From NCBI RefSeq assembly GCF_024628725.1, contig NZ_CP102410.1:620001-684000 (forward strand): 64,000 nucleotides of DNA, read 5' to 3'. Under the pieces are notes generated by a model, which ran no database searches, was not told the DNA's origin, and was given only the letters and a program-made list of their open reading frames with translations. The stretch is from Ruegeria sp. YS9 (GTDB lineage: Bacteria; Pseudomonadota; Alphaproteobacteria; Rhodobacterales; Rhodobacteraceae). Of the stretch, positions 19,171 to 39,203 are shown one piece after another (the stretch's first letter is position 1; every line of letters begins with the position of its first letter). A program made the translations under genes and the position numbers.

Positions 19171-20043
19171 ATGACCGCCAAGTATTATTCGCCACACGGT
19201 GGGCATCCTGGTCAGGAGCAATTGCTGACTGACCGCGCCGTTTTTACTGACGCGTATGCAGTGATCCCAAAGGGAACGATGCGGGATATCGTGACCAGTT
19301 TTCTGCCGTTTTGGGACGACACCCGCTTATGGGTGATATCACGCCCGCTCAGCGGCTTTGCAGAAACCTTTTCGCAATACATCATGGAAGTTCAGCCCGG
19401 CGGTGGCTCTGACCGGCCCGAGACCGATCCCGAAGCCGAAGGCGTTTTGTTCGTGGTCGAAGGTACAGCGACCTTGACGGCCGACGGCACGACCTATCAG
19501 CTGACGCCCGGCGGCTATGCCTACCTGCCCGCTGAATGCAACTGGACCTTACGAAACCGAGGCGGTGAGACCCTGCGCTTCCACTGGATTCGAAAGGCTT
19601 ATGAAGCGGTGGAAGGGCTTGACCGCCCGGACGTTCTGGTTCTCAACGAAAATGAGATCACGCCGACGCCGATGCCCGGAACCGACGGAAAATGGGCCAC
19701 GACGCGCTTTGTCGATCCAAGTGACTTGCGGCACGATATGCACGTGACCGTGGTGACTTTCGAGCCCGGCGCCGTCATTCCTTTCCTTGAAACACATGTG
19801 ATGGAACATGGTCTGTATGTTCTTGAGGGAAAGGCCGTCTACAGGCTGAACAATGATTGGGTAGAGGTCGAGGCCGGCGATTACATGTGGTTGCGCGCAT
19901 TCTGCCCGCAGGCCTGCTATGCAGGCGGGCCGGGTAAGTTCCGTTACCTGCTGTACAAAGACGTGAACCGACATATGGCATTGCGGCCGGGGCCAGCGGC
20001 TTATCCGCAGCACCGGCGCCTCAGGACAGCGGCGCAGAAATAG
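19171..20043 (+). CDS. allE: (S)-ureidoglycine aminohydrolase
   Basis: A 290-residue bicupin of the AllE/UGLYAH family. It hydrolyses (S)-ureidoglycine to (S)-ureidoglycolate and ammonia in purine/ureide breakdown. Two cupin repeats are visible: about 70-130 (GVLFVVEGTATLTADGTTYQL, then GGYAYLPAECNW) and about 190-265 (EPGAVIPFLETHVMEHGLYVLEG, then VEAGDYMWLRAFCPQACYAGG). The second cupin carries the E-H-E metal ligands. CAGGAG precedes the ATG. It stands alone on the plus strand and converges with bhcR, the two coding ends overlapping by 23 bp. Its product is used by AllA at 27114. Confidence 0.9.
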   Translation: MTAKYYSPHGGHPGQEQLLTDRAVFTDAYAVIPKGTMRDIVTSFLPFWDDTRLWVISRPLSGFAETFSQYIMEVQPGGGSDRPETDPEAEGVLFVVEGTATLTADGTTYQLTPGGYAYLPAECNWTLRNRGGETLRFHWIRKAYEAVEGLDRPDVLVLNENEITPTPMPGTDGKWATTRFVDPSDLRHDMHVTVVTFEPGAVIPFLETHVMEHGLYVLEGKAVYRLNNDWVEVEAGDYMWLRAFCPQACYAGGPGKFRYLLYKDVNRHMALRPGPAAYPQHRRLRTAAQK

Positions 20044-20869
20044 TCCCGCCGATGGCCAGAGTTAACTGATTCGCCGCCTCGATGACGGGGCGGCTTAGGC
20101 GCACGATTTCGGCTTCGCTGACGCGGCTTGTCGGTCCGGATACTGAAATCCCGGCAACCGCCTCTCGGTTGGTATCGAAAACCGGCGCAGCGATACAGCG
20201 CATTCCCGCATTCTTTTCTTCATTGTCTATCGAGAAGCCCTGTGCCCTGACCTTGGCAAGATCTTCTTTCAGCGCGGTCGGGCTTGTAATCGACCGGTCC
20301 GTGAAGGCCCGCAGTTCCGTCTTGGCCAACAGCCGGTCCAGCCGATCTTCATCCATATATGCCAGCAGAGCTTTCCCGATGCCCGATGCGTGCATCGGAG
20401 ACAGCGTGCCCGGAGGGAAAAACGCCCGGATGCTGGCATGGGTTTCCACCTGGCTCAGGAACAATACCATTCCTTCTTTCTCGACCCCCAGGTTTGCGGT
20501 CTCGCCGGTGGCCTCCATCAGCTTTCGCATCACGGGTCGGGCCCGGTCCACAAGGCTGGTGCGACGCAGGAAGCGCGAGCCGATCACGAACGCACGAGGA
20601 CCGATGTGCCAGACCTGCTCGTCATGATCGAACTCGACAAGGCCCCTGCCCTCTAGTGTAACGAGGATTCGGTAAACTGTGGCGGGCGACTGGCCCATTT
20701 CGTCGGACAGCGCGGTCAACGCCTTGCCCTGCGCTTCACTCAGATACTCAAAAACTTCCATCGCACGGTCGAGAGATTTGATCGTGTTTTGCGCTGTCTT
20801 GTCGTCCCATCCCCGTGGTCTTCCACGGGCTCTTCTGCGGACTTCGCGAGTATTGTCTTGAGAATCCAT
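20021..20869 (-). CDS. bhcR: IclR-family regulator of the beta-hydroxyaspartate cycle (BhcR-like)
   Basis: A 282-residue IclR regulator with an N-terminal helix-turn-helix (about 33-90; ALTALSDEMGQSPATVYRILVTLEGRGLV) and a C-terminal effector-binding domain (about 105-275; MHASGIGKALLAY, then CIAAPVFDTNREAVAGISVSGP). It is divergent from bhcABCD, the arrangement described in Paracoccus denitrificans, where BhcR senses glyoxylate. A perfect dyad in the 169-bp gap is the obvious binding site. The C-terminal coding end overlaps allE tail to tail. The symbol rests on gene context as well as family. Confidence 0.85.
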   Translation of the reverse strand: MDSQDNTREVRRRARGRPRGWDDKTAQNTIKSLDRAMEVFEYLSEAQGKALTALSDEMGQSPATVYRILVTLEGRGLVEFDHDEQVWHIGPRAFVIGSRFLRRTSLVDRARPVMRKLMEATGETANLGVEKEGMVLFLSQVETHASIRAFFPPGTLSPMHASGIGKALLAYMDEDRLDRLLAKTELRAFTDRSITSPTALKEDLAKVRAQGFSIDNEEKNAGMRCIAAPVFDTNREAVAGISVSGPTSRVSEAEIVRLSRPVIEAANQLTLAIGGTISAPLS

Positions 20870-20958
20870 AAAAACCCTTTGATCATTCGTGAAAGCCTAA
20901 TTCATCATATGAAAAATATAAGGCACTGACAATTATAAATTAAATCCAAATCACCGAA

Positions 20959-20979
20959 TTTTGAAAAGCATTTTCAAAA
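20959..20979. promoter_or_regulatory. perfect 9-bp inverted repeat, candidate BhcR operator
   Basis: TTTTGAAAA, then GCA, then TTTTCAAAA: two perfect 9-bp arms with a 3-bp centre, in the gap between bhcR and bhcA. The A/T-rich arms around GAAAA/TTTTC and the size suit an IclR dimer-of-dimers site. A smaller dyad, TTCAT-CAT-ATGAA, lies at 20901-20913 nearer bhcR. Confidence 0.55.
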
Positions 20980-21038
20980 ATGTATCGGGCTGAGCGAGGG
21001 ACGCTTATTGTGTGGTCAACGACGGAAGGAGACCATCC

Positions 21039-22229
21039 ATGAGCTTTCAAAACCCCGTTTTCATCCCGGGCCCGACCAACATCCCGGAAAGCCTGCGCAA
21101 GGCTTGCGACATGCCCACCATCGACCATCGCTCGCCGCTGTTCGGGCAAATCCTGCACCCCGCGCGCGCGGGTGTTCAGAAAGTCCTGAAAAGCAACAGC
21201 GCAGAAGTCTTCATCTTTCCGTCGACCGGAACAGGAGGCTGGGAGACCGCGCTGACCAACACCCTGTCGGCCGGTGACAAGGTTCTGGCGGCGCGCAACG
21301 GCATGTTCAGCCATCGCTGGATCGATATGTGCCAACGTCACGGTCTGAATGTCGAGATCGTCGAAACCCCTTGGGGCGACGGGCTGCCAGCCGATCGTTT
21401 CGAAGAGATTCTGACCGCCGACACAAGCCACGAAATCAAGGCTGTTCTTGCCACGCATAACGAGACGGCAACCGGTGTGAAATCGGATATTGCCGCTATA
21501 CGCAAGGCGCTGAATGCCGCCCGTCACCCTGCCATGCTGTTCGTCGATGGTGTTTCATCGATCGGGTCCATGGATTTCCGTTTTGACGAATGGGGTGTTG
21601 ATGTGGCCGTCACGGGCTCGCAGAAAGGGTTCATGTTGCCTGCGGGCCTTGCCATCGTCGGGTTCAGCCAGCGGGCAATGGGTGCGACCAGCACAGGCAC
21701 CCTGCCCCGCACCTTCTTTGACGTGCACGACATGGCGAAGGGTTATGCCAACAACGCCTATCCTTATACCCCTGCTGTTGGCTTGATGAATGGCCTCAAC
21801 CAGGCCTGCGATATGTTGCTGAGTGAAGGTTTGGAAAACGTCTTTGCCCGGCATCACCGTATTGCCGAAGGAGTACGTGCCGCGGTGGGCGCGTGGGGGC
21901 TGGAGCTTTGCGCAGCGAACCCGTCGGTATATTCTGACACCGTCAGCGCGATCCGCACGCCAAACGATTTCAACGCCACCGACATTGTAACACACGCGGC
22001 CGAAAAATACGGCGTGGCCTTCGGTGTCGGCCTTGGCGAAGTCGCGGGCAAGGTATTCCGCATCGGACATCTGGGAAGCCTGACGGATGTCATGGCCCTG
22101 TCCGGGATTGCCACCGCTGAAATGTGCATGGTCGACCTGGGCCTGAACATCCGTCTGGGCTCGGGCGTGGCGGCTGCGCAGGAATACTATCGCGGTCATT
22201 CGGGCGCCGTTCAGAAGGACGCCGCATGA
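21039..22229 (+). CDS. bhcA: aspartate-glyoxylate aminotransferase
   Basis: A 396-residue class V PLP aminotransferase. In the beta-hydroxyaspartate cycle it transfers the amino group of aspartate to glyoxylate, giving glycine and oxaloacetate. Family marks: FIPGPTNIPESLRKA at the N-terminus, STGTGGWETALTNTL (about 67-81), VDGVSSIGSMDF (about 168-179) and the PLP lysine at residue 196 in VTGSQKGFMLPAG. It resembles serine-glyoxylate aminotransferases; the assignment to bhcA rests on the following bhcBCD genes. The start at 21039 follows GGAAGGAGA; an upstream in-frame GTG is less likely. It overlaps bhcB by ATGA. Confidence 0.9.
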   Translation: MSFQNPVFIPGPTNIPESLRKACDMPTIDHRSPLFGQILHPARAGVQKVLKSNSAEVFIFPSTGTGGWETALTNTLSAGDKVLAARNGMFSHRWIDMCQRHGLNVEIVETPWGDGLPADRFEEILTADTSHEIKAVLATHNETATGVKSDIAAIRKALNAARHPAMLFVDGVSSIGSMDFRFDEWGVDVAVTGSQKGFMLPAGLAIVGFSQRAMGATSTGTLPRTFFDVHDMAKGYANNAYPYTPAVGLMNGLNQACDMLLSEGLENVFARHHRIAEGVRAAVGAWGLELCAANPSVYSDTVSAIRTPNDFNATDIVTHAAEKYGVAFGVGLGEVAGKVFRIGHLGSLTDVMALSGIATAEMCMVDLGLNIRLGSGVAAAQEYYRGHSGAVQKDAA

Positions 22230-23197
22230 TGAAGGACTGCAACATGTACATCCCGACCTACGAGGACATGCTGGCGGCACATGATCGGATCGAGCCCATT
22301 ATCCGCCGCACACCGGTCCGCACCTCGGACTATCTGAACGAACTGAGCGGTGCACAGCTGTTCTTCAAATGTGAGAACTTTCAGGAACCGGGTGCCTTCA
22401 AGGTGCGCGGGGCAGCAAACGCCGTGTTTGGCCTTGATGACGAACAGGCCAGGAAAGGCGTTGCAACCCATTCTTCGGGCAACCACGCCTCGTGCCTGTC
22501 CTATGCGGCGATGAAGCGGGGCATACCGTGCAACGTCGTCATGCCGCGCACAGCGCCGCAGGCCAAGAAAGACACGGTGCGTCGCTATGGTGGGAAGATC
22601 ACGGAATGTGAGCCCTCCACCTCGTCGCGCGAAGCGACCTTTGCCGAGGTTCAGGCCTCCACGGGCGGGGATTTTGTCCACCCCTACAATGATCCGCGCG
22701 TGATAGCCGGGCAAGGCACCTGCTCGCGCGAGTTCATCGAGCAGACCGACGGTCTGGACGCGGTGGTCGCCCCCATCGGCGGCGGCGGCATGGTGTCCGG
22801 CACCTGTCTGACCCTGTCGACGCTCGCCCCGGAAACCGCGATCATCGCGGCGGAACCGGAACAGGCCGACGATGCCTATCGCAGCTTCAAGGCCGGCCAC
22901 ATCATAGCGGATGACGCACCCAAGACGATTGCCGACGGGCTGCTGGTTCCGCTGAAGGAGCTGACCTGGCATTTCGTGTCGAACCATGTCTCCGCGATCT
23001 ACACGGCTTCCGAGCAAGAGATCATCGACGCGATGAAACTGACGTGGAAACACCTTCGGATCGTGATGGAACCATCTTCGGCCGTTCCGCTGGCTACGAT
23101 CCTGAAAAACCCGGTCGCTTTCAAAGGCAAGCGGGTCGGCGTGATCATAACCGGGGGTAATGTCGATCTGGACAGGCTGCCCTGGCTGAACGCGTAA
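22226..23197 (+). CDS. bhcB: beta-hydroxyaspartate dehydratase
   Basis: A 323-residue fold-type II PLP enzyme of the threonine/serine dehydratase family. It removes water from (2R,3S)-beta-hydroxyaspartate to give iminosuccinate. The PLP lysine is in EPGAFKVRGAANAV (Lys59), THSSGNHASCLSYAA is near 85-99, and the phosphate-binding loop APIGGGGMVSG near 183-193. The start is uncertain: ATG at 22226 (coupled to the bhcA stop) or ATG at 22244 (MYIPTYEDM), each with an AAGGA about 6-7 bases upstream. It is second in the bhcABCD run; bhcC begins 27 bp downstream. Confidence 0.9.
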   Translation: MMKDCNMYIPTYEDMLAAHDRIEPIIRRTPVRTSDYLNELSGAQLFFKCENFQEPGAFKVRGAANAVFGLDDEQARKGVATHSSGNHASCLSYAAMKRGIPCNVVMPRTAPQAKKDTVRRYGGKITECEPSTSSREATFAEVQASTGGDFVHPYNDPRVIAGQGTCSREFIEQTDGLDAVVAPIGGGGMVSGTCLTLSTLAPETAIIAAEPEQADDAYRSFKAGHIIADDAPKTIADGLLVPLKELTWHFVSNHVSAIYTASEQEIIDAMKLTWKHLRIVMEPSSAVPLATILKNPVAFKGKRVGVIITGGNVDLDRLPWLNA

Positions 23198-23224
23198 CAT
23201 CAATCCCGACATAGGAATACGGAA

Positions 23225-24388
23225 ATGAAAGATATGACCAATCTCGACAATTTCGAAGTAGGCTTTGACATTCCGGCCAAGCCCGGAATGGATGAAGCAG
23301 ATATCCAGACCCCCTCTCTTGTGCTCGATCTCGACGCGCTTGAACGCAACATCAAGAAGATGGGCGACTATGCCAAGGCGCACGGCATGCGCCACCGCGT
23401 GCATGGAAAAATGCACAAATCTGTAGACGTGGCCAAGTTGCAGGAGAAAATCGGAGGCGCCGTTGGCGTTTGCTGCCAGAAAGTTTCAGAGGCCGAAGTG
23501 TTCGTGCGCGGCGGTATCAAGGACGTTCTGGTGTCGAACCAGGTGCGCGACCCTGCCAAGATCGACCGTCTTGCCAGCCTGCCAAAGCTGGGCAGCCGCA
23601 TCATCGTTTGCGTCGACGATCTGGACAATGTCGCGGATCTTTCCGGCGCGGCGGTGGATCATGGGACACAGCTGGAAGTCTTCATCGAGATCGACTGCGG
23701 CGCTGGCCGTTGCGGCGTGACAACGACCCCGGAAGTGATCGAGATTGCCAAAGCGGTCAAAGCGGCTGACAACCTGAAATTCACCGGCATACAGGCCTAT
23801 CAGGGGGCCATGCAGCACCTCGACAGCTATGAAGCGCGCAAGGAAAAGCTCGATACCGCCATTGCCATGGTAAAAGACGCCGTCGAGGGCCTCAAAGCCG
23901 AAGGCATCGAGTGCGAATTGGTCTCGGGCGGTGGCACCGGTTCATACTACTTCGAGTCCAACTCGGGCGTGTACAACGAACTGCAATGCGGGTCCTACGC
24001 GTTCATGGATGCCGATTACGGCCGGATCCTGGACAAGGACGGCAACCGGATCGATCAGGGCGAGTGGGAAAACGCCTTCTTCATCCTGACCAGCGTCATG
24101 AGCCACGCCAAGGCGGACAAGGCGATTGTCGATGCGGGCCTCAAGGCGCAGTCGGTGGACAGCGGCCTGCCGGTAGTCTTTGGCCGCGACGATGTCGAAT
24201 ACATCAAGTGTTCGGACGAACACGGCGTCGTCATGGATACGAAAGGTGTGCTGAAGGTCAACGACAAGCTCAGGCTGGTTCCGGGACACTGCGACCCAAC
24301 CGCAAATGTACACGATTGGTATGTCGGTGTTCGCAACGGCAAGGTCGAGACCGTCTGGCCCGTATCCGCCCGCGGACGCGCTTATTGA
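23225..24388 (+). CDS. bhcC: beta-hydroxyaspartate aldolase
   Basis: A 387-residue fold-type III (alanine racemase-like) PLP enzyme of the DSD1/D-threonine aldolase family. It joins glycine and glyoxylate into (2R,3S)-beta-hydroxyaspartate, the carbon-carbon bond-forming step. TPSLVLDLDALERNIKKM is at about 28-45, and HGKMHKS (about 60-66) contains the likely PLP lysine, Lys62. CGAGRCGV is near 159, and SGGGTGSYYFES, the PLP-phosphate loop, near 237. A C-terminal D-threonine aldolase-type metal site is expected (VPGHCDPTANVHDWY near 358). It lies between bhcB and bhcD, with a 116-bp hairpin-rich gap before bhcD. Confidence 0.92.
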   Translation: MKDMTNLDNFEVGFDIPAKPGMDEADIQTPSLVLDLDALERNIKKMGDYAKAHGMRHRVHGKMHKSVDVAKLQEKIGGAVGVCCQKVSEAEVFVRGGIKDVLVSNQVRDPAKIDRLASLPKLGSRIIVCVDDLDNVADLSGAAVDHGTQLEVFIEIDCGAGRCGVTTTPEVIEIAKAVKAADNLKFTGIQAYQGAMQHLDSYEARKEKLDTAIAMVKDAVEGLKAEGIECELVSGGGTGSYYFESNSGVYNELQCGSYAFMDADYGRILDKDGNRIDQGEWENAFFILTSVMSHAKADKAIVDAGLKAQSVDSGLPVVFGRDDVEYIKCSDEHGVVMDTKGVLKVNDKLRLVPGHCDPTANVHDWYVGVRNGKVETVWPVSARGRAY

Positions 24389-24478: not shown

Positions 24479-24504
24479 GCACGAATTTTTGATTGGAGAA
24501 TGAA

Positions 24505-25470
24505 ATGCTGATCGTACCCGAGCGTGAGATCGCTGACCTTATGACCCGACAAGCGGCTTTTGACGCGGTCGAACAGGTCTTTGCTGCAATGGCGTCCGGC
24601 GACGCCTACAACTTCCCTGTCGTGCGTGAAGCCATCGGGCATGAAGATGCACTTTATGGGTTCAAGGGCGGATTTGACCGCACCGGCCTGACGCTTGGAC
24701 TGAAGGCGGGCGGCTATTGGCCAAACAATCTGGAAAAACGCGGGCTGATCAACCACCAGTCCACCGTTTTTCTTTTCGACCCCGACACGGGCAGGCCATC
24801 TGCGATGGTCGGTGGCAACCTTCTGACGGCCCTTCGAACGGCGGCAGCATCTTCGGTATCGATCAAGCATCTCGCACGTAGCGACGCCAGGGTCATAGGC
24901 ATGATAGGCGCTGGCCACCAGGCAGCCTTTCAGCTTCGCGCGGCATTGGAGCAACGCGGTTTTGAAAAGGTCATAGGCTGGAACTATCACCCGGAAATGC
25001 TGCCGAATATCGAAAAAGTCGCCAATGAAGCCGGCGTTCCGTTCCAGGCGGTCGAGCTTGACGAAATGACTGAGGCGGATGTGATTATTTCGATCACGTC
25101 GGCCTTTGCGCCCTCGCTGATGGCGAACCATGTCAGCCCCGGAACTCATATCGCCTGCATGGGCACGGACACAAAAGGTAAACAGGAAGTTGAAGCGTCC
25201 CTTCTGGCCAAGGCGAGCGTGTTCACGGACGAAGTCGCGCAATCCGTCAGCATCGGCGAAGCGCAGCACGCGGTGGCCGAAGGCCTGATCCAAGAAGGCG
25301 ATGTGGCGCAGCTTGGCGCGGTCATCAACGGCACCGATCCGGGTCGGATATCGGACAACCAGATCACGCTGTTCGATGGCACGGGGGTGGGCCTGCAAGA
25401 TCTTGCGGTCGCCGCGTCCGTGGTTGACCTCGCCGTTCGGAACGGGGTCGCGATCGAGGTCGATTTCTGA
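24505..25470 (+). CDS. bhcD: iminosuccinate reductase
   Basis: A 321-residue protein of the ornithine cyclodeaminase/mu-crystallin family. In the beta-hydroxyaspartate cycle it reduces iminosuccinate to L-aspartate, regenerating the amino donor for BhcA. The NAD(P)-binding motif MIGAGHQAAFQLRAALE is near 134-150. GGNLLTALRTAAASSVSIKHLAR is at about 108-130, and FTDEVAQSVSIGEAQHAVAEG near 234-254. The ATG at 24505 is preceded by TTGGAGAATGAA; the TTG at 24493 is part of that ribosome site. A strong terminator lies 99 bp downstream. Confidence 0.9.
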   Translation: MLIVPEREIADLMTRQAAFDAVEQVFAAMASGDAYNFPVVREAIGHEDALYGFKGGFDRTGLTLGLKAGGYWPNNLEKRGLINHQSTVFLFDPDTGRPSAMVGGNLLTALRTAAASSVSIKHLARSDARVIGMIGAGHQAAFQLRAALEQRGFEKVIGWNYHPEMLPNIEKVANEAGVPFQAVELDEMTEADVIISITSAFAPSLMANHVSPGTHIACMGTDTKGKQEVEASLLAKASVFTDEVAQSVSIGEAQHAVAEGLIQEGDVAQLGAVINGTDPGRISDNQITLFDGTGVGLQDLAVAASVVDLAVRNGVAIEVDF

Positions 25471-27113: not shown

Positions 27114-27599
27114 TCATTCTGTGATTTCAAAAGCCTCCTCGAACCAATGCTCTTCGAGGTTGGGCCCGGCTCCAATTCGGTCGACCACCGCAAAAAGCCC
27201 GGGCGCATGAAGCGGGGTCAGAACGCCATGCCAGGTGTTGCGATGGTAATTCACACCCTGTCCGGGCGCTGTTTTGAAGGCGATGGGCTGTCCCGGCGTG
27301 CCGTTCTCATCCGGGGCCACAACCACGACAAATGGTTTGTCCGACAAAGGCAAAAAGGCCTGGCTGCCATCAGGATGGCGTTCAACCATTTCCAATTTGA
27401 TCGGCAGACTGAAGGCTTCGGACTGAAACACGCTGATACCCGCGCGCCCATCGTGGAAATCCAACACGGCCCGGTCGTGATAGCGCGCGCATTTACCCTG
27501 ATTGATAAGCTTGTCCACCTGGCCCGTCGCCTCGATGACATCGCCGAAAGGTGCAAATGCCTCTGACGTCAAGGGGCGGAGCTTCAAGGCAGCCGTCAT
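27114..27599 (-). CDS. allA: ureidoglycolate lyase
   Basis: A 161-residue cupin-fold enzyme of the AllA family. It splits (S)-ureidoglycolate into glyoxylate and urea, the final step of ureide breakdown. Motifs: LRPLTSEAFAPFGDVIEA (about 6-23), VERHPDGSQAFLPLSDKPFVVVVAP (about 72-96) and NYHRNTWHGVLTPL (about 117-130). The start overlaps the stop of the PuuE-UraD fusion (ATGA). Its product glyoxylate is exactly the substrate of the neighbouring Bhc enzymes, which gives the locus its logic. Length is typical for the family. Confidence 0.93.
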   Translation of the reverse strand: MTAALKLRPLTSEAFAPFGDVIEATGQVDKLINQGKCARYHDRAVLDFHDGRAGISVFQSEAFSLPIKLEMVERHPDGSQAFLPLSDKPFVVVVAPDENGTPGQPIAFKTAPGQGVNYHRNTWHGVLTPLHAPGLFAVVDRIGAGPNLEEHWFEEAFEITE

Positions 27600-29008: not shown

Positions 29009-29059
29009 ATCGGTTTCCTTCTTCTTGAATTGATCAATACCCCAGATAATCAAAGATGT

Positions 29060-29508: not shown

Positions 29509-29513
29509 GCGAC

Positions 29514-30535: not shown

Positions 30536-31768
30536 ATGTACGACTTGGCCGTAATGTGGGAGTGGATCGCCTTTTCCGTCCGCTGGCTGCATGTGATCAC
30601 CGCGATGGCGTGGATTGGGGCGTCATTCTACTTTATCGCGCTGGATCTCATGTTAAAGCCAAACCCTGCCTTGCCGGACGGGGCCTACGGCGAAGAATGG
30701 GAAGTACACGGAGGCGGTTTCTACCACACCGTCAAGTATCTGGTTGCACCCTCGCGCATGCCCGAGCACCTGACCTGGCACAAATGGCAAAGTTATACGA
30801 CCTGGCTGTCGGGCGCGGCGTTGCTCATGATCATATACTGGGTCGGGGGCGAATTGTTCCTGCTTGATCCGACCAAAGTGGACCTGGCGCTGTGGCAGGG
30901 GATTCTGATTTCCGGCGGATCGCTGACCATTGGTTGGTTGCTCTACGACCAGATGTGCAAATCGAAGCTGAGCGATCACCCGACCGTTCTGATGCTGCTG
31001 TTGTTCGTGATCCTCGTGATCATGTCCTGGGGTTACAACCAGATCTTCACCGGTCGTGCCGCGCTTTTGCATCTTGGCGCCTTCACTGCGACGATCATGA
31101 CGGCCAACGTGTTCTTTCAGATCATGCCGAACCAACGGATCGTGGTCGAAGACCTCAAGGCCGGTCGGACGCCCGATGCCAAATACGGCAAGATCGCCAA
31201 GGTACGATCCACGCATAACAACTATCTGACTTTGCCGGTCGTGTTCCTGATGTTGTCGAACCATTATCCGCTTGCTTTCGGCACCCAGTATTCCTGGATC
31301 ATCGCCAGCCTGATCTTTCTGACCGGTGTCTCCATCCGCCACTACTTCAACACGATGCATGCAACTGGGAAAGGCCCGCACTGGACATGGGGCGTGACGG
31401 TTCTGCTAATGGTCGTGATCGCCTGGTTGTCTTCGGTGAGAAACACCGAGACATGGGAGGACGCCGAAGCGCGCGACCTGACGCCATACGAGCAGAAATA
31501 TGCCTCAGCCGCGGGCTTCGAAGACGCCTATGACACGGTCCTGGGCAATTGCTCGATGTGCCACGCCCGCGAGCCGGTGTACGGCACCATGAAATGGGCC
31601 CCGAAAAAGGTTTATCTTGAGACACCCGGCGATGTCGCCCGCAACGCCGACCAGATCTATCTGCAAGCCGGCATCAGCCACGCTATGCCACCACCATCAG
31701 CAGTGCAAATGGATGAAGAGGCACGCCAAATCATCATCGCATGGGTGCGTGAAGTCAGAGACCAATAG
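30536..31768 (+). CDS. puuD: membrane-bound urate hydroxylase with C-terminal cytochrome c domain
   Basis: A 410-residue inner-membrane protein that oxidises urate to 5-hydroxyisourate, replacing soluble uricase. The N-terminal 300 residues form about eight membrane helices (first at about 12-34, WLHVITAMAWIGASFYFIALDL). The C-terminal domain carries a c-type heme site with Cys339, Cys342 and His343 (NCSMCHAREP) and the probable axial Met384 in SHAMPPP. Electrons would therefore pass to the respiratory chain rather than to peroxide-forming oxygen chemistry. The start follows TAGGAG. A terminator lies 28 bp beyond the stop. Confidence 0.93.
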   Translation: MYDLAVMWEWIAFSVRWLHVITAMAWIGASFYFIALDLMLKPNPALPDGAYGEEWEVHGGGFYHTVKYLVAPSRMPEHLTWHKWQSYTTWLSGAALLMIIYWVGGELFLLDPTKVDLALWQGILISGGSLTIGWLLYDQMCKSKLSDHPTVLMLLLFVILVIMSWGYNQIFTGRAALLHLGAFTATIMTANVFFQIMPNQRIVVEDLKAGRTPDAKYGKIAKVRSTHNNYLTLPVVFLMLSNHYPLAFGTQYSWIIASLIFLTGVSIRHYFNTMHATGKGPHWTWGVTVLLMVVIAWLSSVRNTETWEDAEARDLTPYEQKYASAAGFEDAYDTVLGNCSMCHAREPVYGTMKWAPKKVYLETPGDVARNADQIYLQAGISHAMPPPSAVQMDEEARQIIIAWVREVRDQ

Positions 31769-32786: not shown

Positions 32787-32878
32787 GTATTTGCCGTTTG
32801 CGGCGATTTTCCGACTCAATCTTTATACCTATGGTTCCACTGACCACCCTCCGGAAGGCAGGGCAGAGGGAGAATTCC

Positions 32879-34342
32879 ATGACGCATCGCACCCACATCC
32901 AATTTGTCCTCAATGGCAAGGATGTCTCCGTCCCAGACGTGTCGGCAAGCCAGACACTTCTTGATTTCCTGCGCCTGGAACGTCGACTGACAGGAACGAA
33001 GGAAGGCTGCGCCGAAGGCGACTGCGGCGCGTGCACCGTGCTTGTCGGACGGCTTGGGCGCACGGGCCTGCGCTATGCTCCGGTCAATGCCTGCATCCGG
33101 TTTCTTGCCTCTGTCGACGGCTGTCATGTCGTGACGGTTGAACATTTGTCCGGACCTCAAGGCCGGCTGCACCCGGTGCAACAAGCCATGGTCGATCACC
33201 ATGGCAGCCAGTGCGGGTTCTGCACACCGGGCTTCGTCATGGCCCTCTATGCGCTTTGGATGCAAACTCCGGAACCGACCGAGGTTCAGGTTGAAACCGC
33301 ATTGCAGGGGAATCTGTGCCGCTGCACAGGGTATGAGCCAATCATCCGAGCGGCCATTGCCGTCAGCCGCTACGGCACCCCGGCATCTGATCATCTGAAC
33401 AACGAACGCGAAACCATGACCGCGCGCCTGGCGGCCCTGAAGGACGGGCGGCGCGTGGTGTCCGGACCCGACAACAACCTGAGCATTCTCCCGTCCAGCG
33501 TCGATGATCTTGCCGAATGCCTGCAAGCTTATCCAAACGCAACGATCGTGGCGGGGGCCACCGATGTTGGCCTTTGGGTCACCAAGTTCCTGCGCGACAT
33601 TGGCCCCGCCATCTTCACCGGTCATCTCGAAGACCTGAAAACAGTCGAAAGACAGGGGTCTCTCCTCCTGATCGGTGCCGGCGCCAGCTACACCGATTGC
33701 CAGGACCTTCTGTCTGAACACCTGCCACACCTGTCCTCCTACTGGGATCGCATCGCAGGGTGGCAGGTGCGGAATATGGGAACCGTCGGCGGTAATATCG
33801 CCAATGGCTCTCCCATCGGGGACACGCCACCGGTTCTTATTGCGCTCGGCGCGGAAATCACTCTGCGGCGCGGTTCCGAAAGCCGAACGCTGCCTCTGGC
33901 TGACTTCTTCATCGATTATGGCAAGCAGGACCGCCGGCCAGACGAATTCGTCGAAAGCATCCGCGTGCCCCTGCCCGGACCCAATGATCTGGACGCGGCC
34001 TACAAGATTTCCAAGCGCCGTGACGAGGATATCTCCTCCGTGGCCGCCGGGCTGCACATGAGCGTCACAGACGGGATCATCAGCAATGTGCGCATCGCGT
34101 TCGGCGGCATGGCCGCCACGCCAAAGCGCGCATCGACGGCCGAGGCGGCGCTGAACGGTCAGCCATGGGCACGCGAAAGTTTCGAAGCCGCTGCTGAAGC
34201 GCTGGCCGAAGACTTCTCGCCTCTCACAGATTGGCGCGCATCGTCGGACTATCGGATGCTGACCGCCCAAAACCTGCTGCGCCGGTTCTTCCTTGAAAAC
34301 GACCGCGAAACCGACACCCCCGTTCAACTGGCTTGTGCCTGA
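32879..34342 (+). CDS. xdhA: xanthine dehydrogenase small subunit (2Fe-2S, FAD)
   Basis: A 487-residue subunit carrying two [2Fe-2S] clusters and FAD. The plant-type cluster uses Cys44, Cys49 and Cys52 (GCAEGDCGACTV). The second uses CGFCTPG (Cys112, Cys115) and LCRCTGY near 147-153. The FAD domain from about 190 contains TIVAGATDVGLWVTK and NMGTVGGNIANGSPIGDTPP. Electrons from the molybdenum subunit XdhB pass through it to NAD. The ATG at 32879 was chosen because the protein family starts here; the frame continues upstream into the operator. The next gene, xdhB, follows after 15 bp. Confidence 0.94.
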   Translation: MTHRTHIQFVLNGKDVSVPDVSASQTLLDFLRLERRLTGTKEGCAEGDCGACTVLVGRLGRTGLRYAPVNACIRFLASVDGCHVVTVEHLSGPQGRLHPVQQAMVDHHGSQCGFCTPGFVMALYALWMQTPEPTEVQVETALQGNLCRCTGYEPIIRAAIAVSRYGTPASDHLNNERETMTARLAALKDGRRVVSGPDNNLSILPSSVDDLAECLQAYPNATIVAGATDVGLWVTKFLRDIGPAIFTGHLEDLKTVERQGSLLLIGAGASYTDCQDLLSEHLPHLSSYWDRIAGWQVRNMGTVGGNIANGSPIGDTPPVLIALGAEITLRRGSESRTLPLADFFIDYGKQDRRPDEFVESIRVPLPGPNDLDAAYKISKRRDEDISSVAAGLHMSVTDGIISNVRIAFGGMAATPKRASTAEAALNGQPWARESFEAAAEALAEDFSPLTDWRASSDYRMLTAQNLLRRFFLENDRETDTPVQLACA

Positions 34343-34357: not shown

Positions 34358-36676
34358 ATGAAAGACAACGTTTCCATCATTGGATCGGCCCATACCAACG
34401 TAAACCACGACAGCGCGGTCAAGCACGTCACCGGGCAGGCCGACTACACCGACGACATTGCGTTACCGGAAGGCGCGCTGCACGCGTATCTCGGCGTGTC
34501 AGACGTCGCACACGCCAAGCTTCTGGGTATCGATTTCAGCGAAGTTCTGGCAATGCCCGGGGTGGTCGGCGTGCTGACCGCTGATGACGTGCCTGGCGCC
34601 AATGATATCAGCCCGACCCACCTGAACGATGAACCTGTTTTCCCGACCGACGCCATTCAATTCCACGGCCAGCCGTTGTTTGGCGTGATCGCCGAGACCC
34701 GCGACATCGCGCGCCGCGCTGCGGAACGGGCAAAGATCGACTACGAAACCCTGCCCCATGCGCTGGATCCGATTGCCGCGCAGAAAGCAGGATACCCGCA
34801 TGTCACAGCGCCCCTCAAGCTGGAGCGCGGAGATGTCGCCCCAGCGCAGGCGGCCGCGCCCAACCGGATCAAAGGCCGCATGAGCGTTGGCGGTCAGGAT
34901 CACATGTACCTTGAAGGTCACATCGCCTTTGCGATTCCGGGCGAAGACGACGATGTGGTGGTGCATTGCTCGACCCAGCACCCGTCCGAGGCGCAGCACA
35001 TGGTGGCGCATGTCCTTGGGGTGCCGTCCAATGCCGTCGTGGTCAACGTCCGTCGCATGGGTGGGGGGTTTGGCGGCAAGGAAAGCCAGATGAACCTGTT
35101 CTGCGCAGTCGCGGCCATGGCTGCCAAAAAGTGGAACCGCGCCGTCAAAATCCGCCCCGACCGGGATCAGGACATGACGGCAACCGGCAAACGCCATGAC
35201 TTCGTGATCGACTATGATGTCGCATTTGACGACGAGGGCCGCATTCAGGCGGTGGAAGGCAGCTTTGCCGCGCGCTGTGGCTTTTCGGCAGACCTGTCGG
35301 GCCCTGTCACCGACCGGGCGCTATTTCACGCCGACAACGCCTATTTCTATCCGAATGTGCGCCTGAACAGCCACCCGATGAAAACCAACACCGTGTCGAA
35401 TACCGCGTTTCGCGGGTTCGGCGGCCCGCAGGGCGTGATCGCGGCAGAGCGGATGATCGAAGAGATCGCCTATGCCACGGGGCAGGACCCGTTGGATGTG
35501 CGCAAGGCGAATTTCTACGGCACCACGGACCGCAACGTGACCCCGTACCACCAGGAAGTCGAAGACAGCATTCTCGACCGGCTGGTCGGAGAGCTGGAAG
35601 AGACCTCGGAATACCGCCAGCGCCGACAGGACATCATCGCGTTCAACAAGACATCACCGATCCTGAAAAAAGGCATTGCGCTGACGCCGGTCAAGTTCGG
35701 CATTTCCTTCACCGCGACCTGGTACAATCAGGCCGGCGCGCTGGTGCATGTCTACAATGACGGGTCGATCCACCTGAACCACGGTGGCACTGAAATGGGC
35801 CAGGGCCTGAATACCAAGGTTGCTCAGGTCGTGGCCGAGGCCTTCCAGGTCGATTTCAACCGGATCAAGATTACCAAGACGACGACTGAAAAGGTTCCCA
35901 ACACCTCGGCCACTGCGGCGTCCAGCGGGACCGACCTGAATGGCATGGCGGCGTTGAACGCGGTCGAACAGATCAAGGAACGTCTGGTGAAGTTCGCATC
36001 CGAGACCTGGAACGTCTCGCCAGAGGAAGTGTCCTTCCACGCCAATCAGGTGCATATCGGCCAAGACGTTCTGGCCTTCGATGCATTCATCAAACAGGCC
36101 TATCTGGCGCGCGTTCAACTGTCGGCGGCCGGGTTCTACAAGACGCCAAAAATCCACTGGGACCGGGCCAAGGGGCAAGGCCGCCCGTTCTATTACTTCG
36201 CCTATGGCGCGTCCTGTTCAGAAGTCACGATTGACACACTGACCGGTGAATACCGCGTGGATCGCACGGATGTTCTGCATGACGTCGGGCGTTCGTTGAA
36301 CCCAATGTTGGACAAAGGTCAGGTCGAAGGCGCCTTTATTCAGGGCATGGGATGGCTGACCACTGAAGAGCTTTGGTGGGACGATACCGGCCGCCTGCGT
36401 ACCCATGCCCCATCAACATACAAAATCCCACTCGCGTCAGACCGCCCGCGCATCTTCAATGTGAACCTAGCCGATTGGTCGGAAAACCGGGAACTGACCA
36501 TCAAACGCTCCAAGGCTGTTGGCGAGCCGCCGTTCATGCTGGGAATTTCGGTGTTCGAGGCCCTGTCAATGGCCGTGGCCTCGGTCGCGGATTACCGGGA
36601 ATGCCCGCGCCTCGACGCACCGGCCACGCCCGAACGTGTCCTGATGGCGGTCGCGCGGCTGCAAGCGGGGCCCTGA
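34358..36676 (+). CDS. xdhB: xanthine dehydrogenase molybdenum-binding large subunit
   Basis: A 772-residue molybdopterin subunit that hydroxylates hypoxanthine/xanthine to urate. It has the aldehyde oxidase/xanthine dehydrogenase hammerhead domain (about 20-130). Cofactor motifs are GGGFGGKES (about 233-241), NTAFRGFGGPQG (about 348-359), GGTEMGQGLNTK (about 475-486) and the catalytic glutamate Glu723 in KAVGEPPFM. DQDMTATGKRHDF near 269-281 is typical. GATCAGGAGA precedes the start. It is the central gene of xdhABC and its length is normal for the bacterial two-subunit enzyme. Confidence 0.95.
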   Translation: MKDNVSIIGSAHTNVNHDSAVKHVTGQADYTDDIALPEGALHAYLGVSDVAHAKLLGIDFSEVLAMPGVVGVLTADDVPGANDISPTHLNDEPVFPTDAIQFHGQPLFGVIAETRDIARRAAERAKIDYETLPHALDPIAAQKAGYPHVTAPLKLERGDVAPAQAAAPNRIKGRMSVGGQDHMYLEGHIAFAIPGEDDDVVVHCSTQHPSEAQHMVAHVLGVPSNAVVVNVRRMGGGFGGKESQMNLFCAVAAMAAKKWNRAVKIRPDRDQDMTATGKRHDFVIDYDVAFDDEGRIQAVEGSFAARCGFSADLSGPVTDRALFHADNAYFYPNVRLNSHPMKTNTVSNTAFRGFGGPQGVIAAERMIEEIAYATGQDPLDVRKANFYGTTDRNVTPYHQEVEDSILDRLVGELEETSEYRQRRQDIIAFNKTSPILKKGIALTPVKFGISFTATWYNQAGALVHVYNDGSIHLNHGGTEMGQGLNTKVAQVVAEAFQVDFNRIKITKTTTEKVPNTSATAASSGTDLNGMAALNAVEQIKERLVKFASETWNVSPEEVSFHANQVHIGQDVLAFDAFIKQAYLARVQLSAAGFYKTPKIHWDRAKGQGRPFYYFAYGASCSEVTIDTLTGEYRVDRTDVLHDVGRSLNPMLDKGQVEGAFIQGMGWLTTEELWWDDTGRLRTHAPSTYKIPLASDRPRIFNVNLADWSENRELTIKRSKAVGEPPFMLGISVFEALSMAVASVADYRECPRLDAPATPERVLMAVARLQAGP

Positions 36677-36679
36677 GCC

Positions 36680-37558
36680 ATGGTTGCCCCGGGTTCCCTT
36701 AACGAATTTCTGTCCGCGCAGCATTGCGTTATCCGCGTTGCGTTGACGCGTGTCCGCGGGTCTTCGCCGCGCAATGAGGGAACAGAGATGTTCGTGGCAC
36801 CCGGATCGTTGTGGGGAACCATTGGCGGTGGACAGTTGGAATTCCTCGCCATCAACGCCGCGCGGGACATGCTGCGTGATGGAGCGTTGCATCAGGACAT
36901 GGATGTGCCTCTGGGCCCGGAAATCGGGCAATGCTGCGGCGGCAGGGTCGAACTGAACCTGACCCGCATGCGTGCGTCAGACAAATGGGCAGCAAAAGAG
37001 CGCGCCGCCCAGCGCGAAGACGTTTTGCCCCATGTCTATGTCATGGGCGCGGGCCACGTAGGGCGTGCCTTGGCCAATCTGTTTCAGCATCTGCCGGTGC
37101 GCTGCATCCTCGTCGACACCCGGCCGGAAGAGATCGCGCTTTGCGCCGCAAATGTCGAAACAAGGGTCAGCGCGATTCCCGAAGCCGAAATCTGGAGCGC
37201 ACCCAAAGGCAGCGCCTTTATCGTTCTGACCCATGATCACGGGTTGGATTTCCTGCTGACATCCGCAGCGCTGGAACGTCAGGACGCGGCTTACGTAGGG
37301 ATGATCGGATCCGCTACCAAGCGGGTTAAACTCAGAAACTGGGCGCACAAATACTGTGACGGACAGTCTATCGAACACTTGAAATGCCCCATTGGGGCCA
37401 GCGGTAGCCGCGACAAGCGGCCCAGCGTCATCGCCGCCTTCGTGGCGGCCGAAGTGATGGCTGAATTGACCTCTGAAACTGCCGCGACCGCCCTGACTGG
37501 GGCAAACCAGGCGCCCCTGCGGGCCCACCATCACGACCGGAAAGGGAGATCGGCCTGA
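36680..37558 (+). CDS. xdhC: xanthine dehydrogenase accessory protein
   Basis: A 292-residue XdhC-family chaperone. It binds molybdenum cofactor, promotes its sulfuration and inserts it into XdhB. The N-terminal XdhC/CoxI domain has TRVRGSSPRNEGTEMFV (about 22-38), GTIGGGQLEF and GPEIGQCCGGRVEL (about 77-90). The C-terminal Rossmann domain has HVYVMGAGHVGRALANLF (about 117-134) and YVGMIGSATKRVKL (about 206-219). It starts 3 bp after the xdhB stop, which is tight coupling. Not a catalytic subunit itself. Confidence 0.94.
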   Translation: MVAPGSLNEFLSAQHCVIRVALTRVRGSSPRNEGTEMFVAPGSLWGTIGGGQLEFLAINAARDMLRDGALHQDMDVPLGPEIGQCCGGRVELNLTRMRASDKWAAKERAAQREDVLPHVYVMGAGHVGRALANLFQHLPVRCILVDTRPEEIALCAANVETRVSAIPEAEIWSAPKGSAFIVLTHDHGLDFLLTSAALERQDAAYVGMIGSATKRVKLRNWAHKYCDGQSIEHLKCPIGASGSRDKRPSVIAAFVAAEVMAELTSETAATALTGANQAPLRAHHHDRKGRSA

Positions 37559-37601
37559 CACCCGTCGGGCCAGCCCGGTCACATCAGAGGAGGAGACCGT
37601 C

Positions 37602-39203
37602 ATGGACGGGAGGACCTATGAATACAAGCTGTTTACCCGCAGCGATTTCAGCGCTTTCTGGGCGCTGTTCACGGACAACCTTGTAAACTTGCTGATCCTG
37701 TCCGGGGTTTGCCAGTTCGTGTTCCAAATGCCAGCGGAAATCGTCTTTGGCCGCATCGTACCCGGTGCCGCCATTGCGATTTTGGCCGGTGTCGCTGTCT
37801 ACACATATCTCGCCAAATGGGCGGCGAACGCTCAGGGCAAAGACGTTACAGCGTTGCCCTACGGCATCTCGACCCCGGTTATGTTCGTCTACCTGTTCGG
37901 TGTGATCGGTCCCATCTATTGGGCGACCAACGACCCGATGCTGGCTTGGCAAGTCGGAATCGGAGCCGGATTCATGGGCGGCATTGTTGCGGCGTTGGGC
38001 GCAATCGTAGGGCCACACCTCAAGAAGATCACGCCCCGCGCAGGAATGCTGGGCACGCTTTGCGGGATAGCTCTGGTTTTCATCGGCTCCGTCCCTCTGG
38101 CCGAAGTGTTCGAGAACCCCGTCATCGGCTTTACGTCGCTGCTGTTTATCCTTTGGGGCCTGATCGGGCGCTTCCGTCTTCCCGGCAACGTTCCGGCCGG
38201 TCTGGTTGCAATTGCCGCTGGTACGGTGATTGCCATCATCCTTGGTGAGTCAAGGATTGATGTCAGCGGCATCGGGTTCTATCCGCCAATCCCTTACATC
38301 GGGGACCTTATTGCCGGCGTGCAGTACCTTTTTGCCAACCCTGAGCTGTTCCTGGTGCTGATCCCCGTGCAGATCTACAACTTCATCGAAACCATGAACA
38401 ACGTGGAATCGGCCGAGGCCGCGGGGGATCACTACCCGGTTGGGCTGTGCCAGGTCACGGACGGCGCGGGCACGATGCTGGGCGCACTTTTTGGTTCGCC
38501 ATTCCCGACAACCGTGTACATCGGCCATCCGGCCTATAAACGGCTTGATGCGCATGCGGGGTATATTGTCGGTGTGGCCGTTGTAATTGCTGCCGCCGCC
38601 TTCCTTGGGTTCCTGTCATTCCTTGCTGGCCTGATCCCGATCGCCGCAGCCGCACCGGTACTGGTCTTTGTCTCGGTCAGCCTGATCACCAACACGGCAT
38701 GGGCTGTGAAGCCGATGCACATGGCTGCGGTATCCTTCGCGATCCTGCCCCATATCTCGGCCTTCCTGATGGTCAAATGGGGATCGTTGATGAACGCGCT
38801 GCGCAGCAGCGGTGTCGAAGGGCTGCCATCCTTGGGAGATCCCAATCTGACCTCGGCCCTTCTCATGGAAGGGGCCCATTACGAGGGGCACCTTGCCCTG
38901 AGCCAGGGGGCGATCATCACCGGACTGGTCTGGGGCGCCATCGTGGCCGATGTGATTGACGGACGCTTCCGGATGGCCGGCGCGTTTGCCGTCGCAGGTG
39001 GGCTGATGTCTTCGATCGGCATCATCCATTCCTACACGCTACAGATGCCTCAGTTCGACGGGATAACCATCGGCTATCTGATCATCGGCGCGTTCCTCTA
39101 TGTCTACCCGATGTTCGCCCCGAAAGAGGATCTCGAACATCGTATCATCGTACCGGACGAACCCGATCTCATCGATGACGATTCACCCGCCCAACAGGCC
39201 TGA
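37602..39203 (+). CDS. putative xanthine/uracil permease-family transporter downstream of xdhC
   Basis: A 533-residue polytopic membrane protein with about 12-13 hydrophobic segments, distantly like the NCS2/AzgA (xanthine/uracil/guanine) transporters. Characteristic stretches are QGKDVTALPYGISTPVMFVYLFGVIGP (about 73-99), YNFIETMNNVESAEAAGDHYPVG (about 257-279) and LFGSPFPTTVYIGHPAYKRLDA (about 297-318). GAGGAGGAG precedes the ATG. It is 43 bp after xdhC, so it is co-transcribed with xdhABC and probably imports a purine substrate. It is clearly a different subfamily from the permease at 25636. Substrate is not known. Confidence 0.82.
   Translation: MDGRTYEYKLFTRSDFSAFWALFTDNLVNLLILSGVCQFVFQMPAEIVFGRIVPGAAIAILAGVAVYTYLAKWAANAQGKDVTALPYGISTPVMFVYLFGVIGPIYWATNDPMLAWQVGIGAGFMGGIVAALGAIVGPHLKKITPRAGMLGTLCGIALVFIGSVPLAEVFENPVIGFTSLLFILWGLIGRFRLPGNVPAGLVAIAAGTVIAIILGESRIDVSGIGFYPPIPYIGDLIAGVQYLFANPELFLVLIPVQIYNFIETMNNVESAEAAGDHYPVGLCQVTDGAGTMLGALFGSPFPTTVYIGHPAYKRLDAHAGYIVGVAVVIAAAAFLGFLSFLAGLIPIAAAAPVLVFVSVSLITNTAWAVKPMHMAAVSFAILPHISAFLMVKWGSLMNALRSSGVEGLPSLGDPNLTSALLMEGAHYEGHLALSQGAIITGLVWGAIVADVIDGRFRMAGAFAVAGGLMSSIGIIHSYTLQMPQFDGITIGYLIIGAFLYVYPMFAPKEDLEHRIIVPDEPDLIDDDSPAQQA

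What the first reader, a model, noticed from the sequence alone, without database searches (positions are those of the whole stretch)
19171..39203. Purine/ureide catabolism physically fused to the beta-hydroxyaspartate cycle
One 20-kb block encodes xdhABC, puuD, uraH, puuE-uraD, allA, allE and two purine-type permeases, with the complete bhcR-bhcABCD set in its middle. AllA produces glyoxylate, and BhcABCD consume glyoxylate, giving oxaloacetate without CO2 loss. Purine carbon could therefore enter central metabolism directly, without the glycerate pathway (glyoxylate carboligase). The bhc genes are best known from glycolate use; here the locus suggests purines as the glyoxylate source. Gene identities are from family knowledge; the coupled pathway is inference.
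Basis: partly seen in the sequence, partly recalled or inferred. Interest (0 to 1): 0.8.

Follow-up and report, generated by a model that had tools for sequence, protein, structure and literature searches.

The report
Purine breakdown linked to glyoxylate cycle
A marine Ruegeria-type bacterium keeps the genes that break purines down to glyoxylate side by side with the genes that turn glyoxylate into a central metabolite, and many related bacteria share this layout, which suggests purines, not only algal glycolate, feed this pathway.

Summary
Window 19171-39203 encodes AllE, BhcR, BhcABCD, an NCS2 permease, AllA, a PuuE-UraD fusion, UraH, PuuD, XdhABC, a second permease and two LysR regulators. 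It is a cluster of several transcription units, not a fusion, and it has no assigned gene for allantoate hydrolysis.

The linkage is not chance. In 149 genomes of the same order bhcC occurs in 93, and ureidoglycolate lyase (AllA) lies within 10 kb in 37 of 93 (25 of 51 genera; about 0.5 expected). Of those 37 loci 35 hold bhcABCD, 34 also at least three of eight purine genes. Glycolate oxidase glcD, the textbook glyoxylate source, lies within 10 kb of bhcC in 0 of 91 genomes. Glyoxylate carboligase was found in 0 of 149. In two Rhizobiaceae plasmids bhc sits beside glcDEF instead, so bhc looks like a glyoxylate module with lineage-specific partners.

Best reading: purine catabolism here ends in the beta-hydroxyaspartate cycle. 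Flux and induction by purines are untested. My eight literature searches showed no report of the linkage; the 2019 Nature paper on the cycle was not readable.

The parts
19171..20043 (+). allE, (S)-ureidoglycine aminohydrolase; NCBI also models it as 'bifunctional allantoicase/(S)-ureidoglycine aminohydrolase'
   Evidence: NF008376 533.7 bits, NF040771 509.5 vs cut-off 350; closest solved chain 1sq4 'Glyoxylate-induced Protein'
20021..20869 (-). bhcR, IclR-type regulator of bhc; convergent with allE (ORF ends overlap 23 bp)
   Evidence: NF045644 402.1 vs 350
20961..20977 (.). candidate BhcR operator, perfect palindrome, starting 78 bp before the bhcA ATG at 21039
   Evidence: palindrome in the same register upstream of bhcA in 58 of 74 loci with enough upstream sequence; only match in the window at up to 2 mismatches, 0.17 expected
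21039..22229 (+). bhcA, L-aspartate-glyoxylate aminotransferase (ORF opens at 21012)
   Evidence: NF045640 751.7 vs 650
22226..23197 (+). bhcB, beta-hydroxyaspartate dehydratase
   Evidence: NF045641 581 vs 550
23225..24388 (+). bhcC, 3-hydroxy-D-aspartate aldolase; only copy found in the genome
   Evidence: NF045642 757.2 vs 690; best solved chain 6qkb 701.6 bits over 4-387; single copy
24493..25470 (+). bhcD, iminosuccinate reductase
   Evidence: NF045643 589.4 vs 500; best solved chain 6rqa 473 bits
25636..27117 (-). NCS2 (xanthine-type) permease; true start probably about 19 codons downstream
   Evidence: TIGR03173 pbuX 424.9 vs 414.15; 1425 bp in AD91A
27114..27599 (-). allA, ureidoglycolate lyase: makes glyoxylate + urea
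   Evidence: NF002952 279 vs 260; solved relatives 2bdr, 1xsr
27596..29053 (-). puuE-uraD fusion: allantoinase + OHCU decarboxylase
   Evidence: TIGR03212 499.3 vs 424.6, TIGR03164 206.3 vs 96.25
29050..29066 (.). weak BhcR-box-like site at the puuE/uraH divergent intergenic region; not distinguished within this window
   Evidence: matrix score 10.6, five other non-bhcA sites in the window score higher; across relatives 13 of 29 distinct intergenics score >=10 vs 1.0 expected from shuffles
29155..29508 (+). uraH, hydroxyisourate hydrolase
   Evidence: TIGR02962 126.3 vs 87.45
29514..30434 (-). LysR-family regulator 1
   Evidence: LysR-family hits, none of those shown over its cut-off
30536..31768 (+). 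puuD, membrane urate oxidase/hydroxylase
   Evidence: PF06181 430.7 bits
31823..32773 (-). LysR-family regulator 2
   Evidence: LysR-family hits, none of those shown over its cut-off
32798..34342 (+). xdhA (ORF with TTG start; real start probably ~80 bp downstream)
   Evidence: TIGR02963 654.9 vs 467; 1464 bp in AD91A
34358..36676 (+). xdhB
   Evidence: TIGR02965 1328.7 vs 849.5
36680..37558 (+). xdhC, accessory protein
   Evidence: TIGR02964 272.5 vs 161.6
37602..39203 (+). second permease (xanthine/uracil/vitamin C permease by orthologue annotation)
   Evidence: no family hit; 99% orthologue in AD91A so annotated

Best explanation
The block is a purine-to-oxaloacetate catabolic cluster. Purines enter through the two permeases; XdhAB makes urate; PuuD, UraH, UraD and PuuE make allantoate; an allantoate-hydrolysing activity (unassigned: AllE itself or an AllC-family enzyme elsewhere), AllE and AllA make glyoxylate and urea. 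BhcA-D then convert two glyoxylate to one oxaloacetate without losing CO2, taking the place that glyoxylate carboligase holds in E. coli and Pseudomonas. BhcR, which responds to glyoxylate, senses the end product of the purine branch. Shown here: gene content, recurrence of the layout, no glyoxylate carboligase found, a conserved operator-like palindrome. Inferred from family knowledge: each reaction. Not shown: flux, growth, induction.
For: Family assignments over curated cut-offs. AllA within 10 kb of bhcC in 37 of 93 genomes, 25 of 51 genera, random expectation about 0.5; on inspection 35 of 37 carry bhcABCD and 34 also at least three of eight purine genes. A core order allE-bhcR-bhcABCD-(GAPDH-like)-ncs2-allA-puuE/uraD-uraH-lysR-puuD, or parts of it, recurs in many of them. 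glcD within 10 kb of bhcC in 0 of 91 genomes having both. gcl in 0 of 149. Of the 80 best named BhcC loci 46 carry at least one purine gene. The pairing also occurs outside the order in 2 of 18 loci read (L143, L144). BhcR-like box at the ureide promoter in 13 of 29 distinct sequences (1.0 expected). Precedent: in P. aeruginosa the gcl cluster is allantoin-inducible and needed on allantoin (PMC12694930, abstract seen).
Against: 56 of 93 bhcC genomes have no AllA within 10 kb; R. pomeroyi has no purine gene listed within 15 kb of bhcC. Purine genes are near-universal in the order (AllA in 145 of 149), also in 52 of 56 genomes without bhcC, so the cycle is not needed for having the purine route. 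Malate synthase G is present. The cluster lacks an allantoate amidohydrolase, and no allantoicase was found in the genome (where no control rang, so this does not show absence). The shared core order means many genera may reflect one ancestral event. In this window the ureide-promoter box is weak and five unrelated sites score higher; the box signal rests on few lineages. A promoter/terminator scan gave no more sites than shuffles.
Confidence: 0.75

Rival explanations
1. The bhc genes serve glycolate (glcDEF elsewhere in the genome); the purine genes serve nitrogen scavenging only, and the neighbourhood is a historical accident of a shared, mobile region.
For: glcD is in 146 of 149 genomes and in this one; P. 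denitrificans bhc and bhcR are needed on glycolate and glyoxylate (PMC11323563, passages seen); 56 of 93 bhcC genomes are not AllA-linked; 118 plasmid records hold bhcC, 21 of them predicted conjugative.
Against: An accident would hardly be kept in 37 genomes of 25 genera, many with the same core order, while glcD is never the neighbour within the order (0 of 91) although it is in two Rhizobiaceae plasmids and two of 18 loci outside the order.
Confidence: 0.12
2. The cycle protects against glyoxylate released during purine use for nitrogen; most carbon goes through malate synthase G.
For: Malate synthase G present; purines release much nitrogen and only one glyoxylate each (pathway knowledge).
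Against: Malate synthase alone gives no net C4 from glyoxylate without acetyl-CoA (pathway knowledge), and no gcl was found, so anaplerosis would be missing; 52 genomes with AllA have no bhcC, so detoxification does not require it.
Confidence: 0.1
3. Chance adjacency in one genome.
For: None beyond the fact that single windows can mislead.
Against: 37 of 93 against about 0.5 expected; seen outside the order as well.
Confidence: 0.02

Closest known systems
bhcR-bhcABCD cluster of Paracoccus denitrificans (beta-hydroxyaspartate cycle)
   Same: Same five genes, same divergent bhcR/bhcA layout as described in PMC11323563 (passages); BhcC and BhcD are closest to the solved chains 6qkb and 6rqa (that these come from P. 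denitrificans is recalled).
   Different: Described for glycolate/glyoxylate; purines and allantoin are named as possible glyoxylate sources in its introduction. Here it sits inside a purine/ureide cluster. In P. ferrooxidans bhc is also followed by purine permease, 8-oxoguanine deaminase, uraH, a PuuD homologue and xdhAB; P. denitrificans itself was not examined.
Allantoin-inducible gcl cluster of Pseudomonas aeruginosa PA1498-PA1502, and the E. coli allantoin/gcl regulon
   Same: Glyoxylate from ureides is assimilated by an enzyme set tied to the purine pathway; glyoxylate-responsive IclR-type control (AllR in E. coli, BhcR here).
   Different: Uses glyoxylate carboligase (PMC12694930 abstract) and loses CO2; gcl was not found here or in 149 genomes of the order.
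glcDEF-bhc clusters of Rhizobiaceae (S. meliloti Rm41 pRM41A, Rhizobium sophoriradicis pCC511_1)
   Same: bhc genes beside a glyoxylate-producing pathway.
   Different: Producer is glycolate oxidase, not ureidoglycolate lyase.
Purine cluster of sister Ruegeria genomes (L112-L115, L118)
   Same: Collinear allE ... allA-puuE/uraD-uraH-lysR-puuD (ncs2 found in 3 of the 5).
   Different: No bhc there; a GAPDH-like gene (all 5) and a small ORF (read in L114 only) lie between allE and ncs2/allA.

Membership tests
beta-hydroxyaspartate cycle (bhc) cluster | All four enzymes BhcA, B, C, D as equivalogs | tested here: met
   All over NCBIfam cut-offs
beta-hydroxyaspartate cycle (bhc) cluster | bhcR divergent from bhcABCD, BhcR equivalog | tested here: met
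   coordinates
beta-hydroxyaspartate cycle (bhc) cluster | BhcR binding in the bhcR-bhcA intergenic region | tested here: inconclusive
   Conserved palindrome in 58 of 74 loci; binding itself not testable
beta-hydroxyaspartate cycle (bhc) cluster | Enzyme activities and growth on glyoxylate | not testable with these tools
   -
Purine-ureide pathway to glyoxylate | Xdh, PuuD, UraH, UraD, PuuE, AllE, AllA present | tested here: met
Purine-ureide pathway to glyoxylate | Allantoate-hydrolysing enzyme (AllC or allantoicase) | tested here: inconclusive
   No allantoicase found (no control rang); two AllC-family amidases over the TIGR01879 cut-off elsewhere, one near preA of the reductive pyrimidine pathway; AllE passes NCBI's 'bifunctional allantoicase' model
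Glycerate pathway (gcl) for ureide glyoxylate | Glyoxylate carboligase | tested here: not met
   Best hit 329.5 vs cut-off 711.2 is acetolactate synthase 3; 0 of 149 genomes
glcDEF-bhc glycolate cluster | glcD adjacent to bhc | tested here: not met
   glcD at C1:3.176 Mb, bhc on C2

The most novel reading that the evidence does not exclude
In Rhodobacterales the beta-hydroxyaspartate cycle is ancestrally and mainly a purine-glyoxylate assimilation route, maintained by selection beside the ureide genes, with glycolate a later or secondary substrate. bhcRABCD is a plug-in module whose neighbour (purine genes or glcDEF) marks the glyoxylate source it serves in each lineage, and BhcR also acts on the ureide promoter in some lineages.
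Probability: 0.4. Interest if true: 0.78.

Novelty: new variant of a known kind. Interest (0 to 1): 0.62.

Why it matters
The cycle is credited with the use of algal glycolate by marine bacteria (PMC11166783, passage). If in many of its carriers it is organised around purine catabolism, then nucleic-acid-derived carbon is a second input, and roseobacters gain a CO2-sparing way to use purines as carbon and not only as nitrogen. The claim is directly testable with deletion strains that already exist, and it predicts which bacteria should grow on allantoin or urate as carbon source.

Tried and rejected
Chance adjacency: rejected by the survey. The expectation of about 0.5 assumes one AllA, uniform placement and 4.1 Mb genomes. 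A hidden gcl: not found (in one search at most 8 candidates per genome were scored, all 12). A second bhc copy in this genome: not found. Whether linkage follows one BhcC clade: a quick tree of 81 BhcC proteins was poorly resolved (15 of 77 inner branches starred); the purine label needed 13 changes, at least 4 forced by starred branches, so I draw no count of gains from it. Whether unlinked bhc loci sit beside glc genes: none of the 80 named loci had glcDEF homologues over 35% identity at E up to 1e-30. Nine recurring ORFs of unlinked loci went to Pfam: putA, MTHFR, PhoX, rhomboid, inositol phosphatase, LysR, and three without a hit. BhcR box before other genes: scores of 10 or more in 0 of 33 allE, 0 of 32 allA, 0 of 30 ncs2, 0 of 10 perm2, 0 of 80 bhcD, 1 of 31 puuD, 3 of 28 lysR1 and 3 of 15 xdhA upstream regions. 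A simple empty site in sister genomes: the junction holds a GAPDH-like gene, so a clean insertion is not shown. Two of the 37 AllA-linked genomes (G014, G019) show only a lone BhcC-like gene in the stretch read; G014's is below the curated cut-off. Outside the order 7 of the 18 loci did not show all of bhcABCD with my queries, among them the glcDEF-linked L139. Promoter and terminator scans gave no more than shuffles. Literature: eight searches; one search was swamped by unrelated acronyms and by unrelated purine papers. No held paper joined 'hydroxyaspartate' with 'ureidoglycolate'. Of 5 that join it with 'allantoin' I saw passages of two, and these do not report the linkage; of 8 with 'purine' and 'glyoxylate' I saw passages of one more. 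The 2019 Nature paper is not held, so prior mention there cannot be excluded.
Full report
WHAT IS THERE. The window lies on contig 2 (748 kb) of a 4.3 Mb genome in 6 contigs. The closest BhcC among the named loci, 98% identical, is from Ruegeria lacuscaerulensis HKCCD5857, and Ruegeria sp. AD91A carries a collinear annotated cluster on a 743 kb plasmid. Reading left to right: allE (+), bhcR (-), bhcA, B, C, D (+), NCS2 permease, allA and the puuE-uraD fusion (all -), uraH (+), a LysR gene (-), puuD (+), a second LysR gene (-), xdhA, B, C (+) and a second permease (+). Coordinates and frames are, names. The frames of bhcA/bhcB and of puuE-uraD/allA overlap by 4 bases, which suggests two operons that converge between bhcD and ncs2.

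PATHWAY COMPLETENESS. From xanthine to allantoate every step has a gene in the block, and so do ureidoglycine to ureidoglycolate and ureidoglycolate to glyoxylate. The allantoate step has none. No allantoicase was found in the genome, but no control genome rang in that search. Two AllC-family amidases lie elsewhere: one under 1 kb from preA of the reductive pyrimidine pathway, one about 1.8 kb from gcvP with serC beyond it. NCBI's exception model calls AllE of this type a bifunctional allantoicase/ureidoglycine aminohydrolase. Neither AllC gene showed as a best match at E up to 1e-12 in the stretches held of the 80 named loci.

OTHER GLYOXYLATE SINKS AND SOURCES. No glyoxylate carboligase: the best TIGR01504 hit scores 329.5 against a cut-off of 711.2 and is acetolactate synthase 3. 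Malate synthase G is present. glcD and glcE lie at C1:3.176 Mb, on another contig. One bhcC was found.

IS THE LINKAGE MORE THAN CHANCE? I searched 149 genomes (own included, at least 95% complete) drawn from the order. bhcC (E up to 1e-120) occurs in 93 genomes and 51 genera, in 84 genomes over the curated cut-off. AllA (PF04115) occurs in 145, including all 93. The distance from bhcC to the nearest AllA on the same contig is at most 10 kb in 37 of 93 genomes and 25 of 51 genera; random placement predicts about 0.5. I then mapped genes in all 37 (stretches, and the window): 35 hold bhcABCD, 34 hold bhcABCD and at least three of eight purine genes, and there are 23 different gene strings, partly because stretches end at different places. 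Two (G014, G019) show only a lone BhcC-like gene. The common core is allE-bhcR-bhcABCD-(GAPDH-like)-ncs2-allA-puuE/uraD-uraH-lysR-puuD; clearly different arrangements are L169, L180 and L181. Much of the breadth is therefore probably shared descent with conserved order, which speaks for maintenance and less for many independent assemblies.

THE CONTRAST WITH GLYCOLATE. With this genome's GlcD as query, 146 of 149 genomes have glcD. Of 93 bhcC genomes 91 have it; in none is it within 10 kb of bhcC, and the nearest is 80.7 kb away. gcl: 0 of 149, while E. coli rings. The published partner of the cycle is thus never its neighbour in this sample.

NAMED RELATIVES. Of the 80 best BhcC loci of genome contigs (a biased sample, nearest to the query first, some stretches short; L026 and L027 lie at the two ends of one contig) 46 carry at least one of eight purine genes at over 40% identity. 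By the record titles and the map these include Ruegeria, Leisingera, Marivita, Shimia, Aliiroseovarius, Defluviimonas, Palleronia, Paracoccus homiensis, and outside the order Roseibium and a Nitratireductor MAG. Of 118 plasmid records with BhcC I looked at 13, chosen for diversity. Purine-linked are 5: Ruegeria AD91A, Paracoccus ferrooxidans, Methylobacterium radiotolerans, Sulfitobacter OXR-159 and Pseudosulfitobacter SMR1. Limimaricola has two NCS1 permeases and a racemase-family gene. glcDEF-linked are 2: Sinorhizobium meliloti Rm41 and Rhizobium sophoriradicis. Neither is seen in 5: R. pomeroyi, P. pantotrophus, P. marcusii, Agrobacterium CFBP7129 (which has an alpha-hydroxy acid oxidase and a xanthine dehydrogenase-family gene nearby) and Aminobacter.

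BEYOND THE ORDER. In 387 genomes of the class 53 matched BhcC, 49 of them outside the order. I took the 18 of these 49 with at least 560 bits; the weaker ones are probably other aldolases (inference). With my queries 11 of the 18 show bhcABCD. Two are purine-linked (L143, L144), two glcDEF-linked (L133 with bhcABCD, L139 with bhcC and D only), the rest neither. bhc therefore behaves like a glyoxylate module with different partners.

WITHIN THE GENUS. In five Ruegeria-genus genomes (same genus code as the window) the purine cluster is collinear but has no bhc between allE and ncs2/allA. One of them (G120) has no bhcC match at all. In all five a GAPDH-like gene stands there. The same gene family follows bhcD, directly or one gene on, in Sulfitobacter, Limimaricola, Agrobacterium, Defluviimonas, Paracoccus homiensis and others. 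A loss of bhcRABCD from a cluster that once had both would explain this; that is inference.

REGULATION. A palindrome TTGAAA-N5-TTTCAA (with variants) stands at the same place before bhcA in 58 of 74 loci with enough upstream sequence, including Marivita loci in which no bhcR was found next to bhcA. It has the form expected of an IclR-family operator (my recall). With a matrix built from these boxes, 13 of 29 distinct puuE-uraH intergenics score 10 or more (1.0 expected from dinucleotide shuffles), against 1 of 24 (0.7 expected) for the lysR1-puuD intergenics. The hits fall mainly in Leisingera and Marivita and their near kin, so few lineages carry the signal, and some Marivita loci (L062, L065) lack it. 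In this window the site is weak (10.6) and five other sites unrelated to bhcA score higher, so for the window itself it proves nothing. Published work has BhcR activating bhc in response to glyoxylate (PMC11323563, passages); that would make the bhc genes respond to the end product of the purine branch whatever the promoter site means.

WHAT IS KNOWN. PMC11323563 names purines and allantoin as possible glyoxylate sources in its introduction and reports nothing on purine neighbours in the passages I saw. PMC12694930 shows the same logic with gcl in P. aeruginosa (abstract). PMC11698098 treats glyoxylate as the carbon product of purine catabolism in SAR11 (passages); it is not among the papers, which hold 'hydroxyaspartate' as well as 'purine' and 'glyoxylate'. 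No linkage report surfaced in eight searches, judged from listings, abstracts' beginnings and the passages named; the 2019 Nature paper could not be read.

VERDICT. Each component is known; the conserved pairing appears unreported in what I could search. It deserves a growth test. Confidence that the cluster works as a purine-to-oxaloacetate route: 0.75.

Noticed in passing
L114:6804-7793, L112-L115, L118; after bhcD (directly or one gene on) in L015, L032, L039, L043, L047, L050, L051, L059, L069, L080, L109, L110, L125, L129, L130: A GAPDH-like gene (about 325 aa; the two read are below NCBI's GAPDH-I and erythrose-4-phosphate dehydrogenase cut-offs) is a recurrent neighbour of bhcD, or stands between allE and ncs2/allA without bhc. 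Since BhcA-C use PLP (recalled), an Epd-like role in PLP supply is one guess; substrate unknown. It is not in the window.
   Followed up: partly
L116 (G014) and L117 (G019): A lone BhcC-like gene lies 19-25 bp from allA with no bhcA, B or D found in the stretch.
   Followed up: partly
L109 (G002:C1:4112000-4130000): A second bhcABCD copy in a genome that also has the purine-linked copy; AllE before it matches in two pieces, perhaps broken.
   Followed up: no
L122:15563-16810 (CP038202 Paracoccus ferrooxidans): CDS annotated 'cysteine desulfurase' matches PuuD at 65%; probable misannotation.
   Followed up: no
L123 (P. pantotrophus NZ_CP058692): bhcBCD without a listed or detected bhcA on a mobilizable 73 kb plasmid, beside alcohol and aldehyde dehydrogenase genes, with IS elements near.
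   Followed up: no
Marivita loci L054, L055, L057, L060, L062, L065, L072: No bhcR found next to bhcA, yet the palindrome is kept at about -75; L057, L060 and L072 also have a good box before puuE, L062 and L065 do not. Regulator unknown.
   Followed up: partly
window 12860-18989: Amino-sugar catabolism cluster directly upstream: sugar ABC transporter binding protein, MurNAc-6-P etherase family, NagB-II-like deaminase, NagA.
   Followed up: no
window 39730-44542: Hydantoinase/oxoprolinase-type pair (caprolactamase-like CapA/CapB, below cut-offs) followed by a HisC-like aminotransferase, downstream of the second permease.
   Followed up: no
order survey: 52 of 56 genomes without bhcC still have allA, and no genome in the sample gave a gcl; how these assimilate ureide glyoxylate, if at all, is open.
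   Followed up: no
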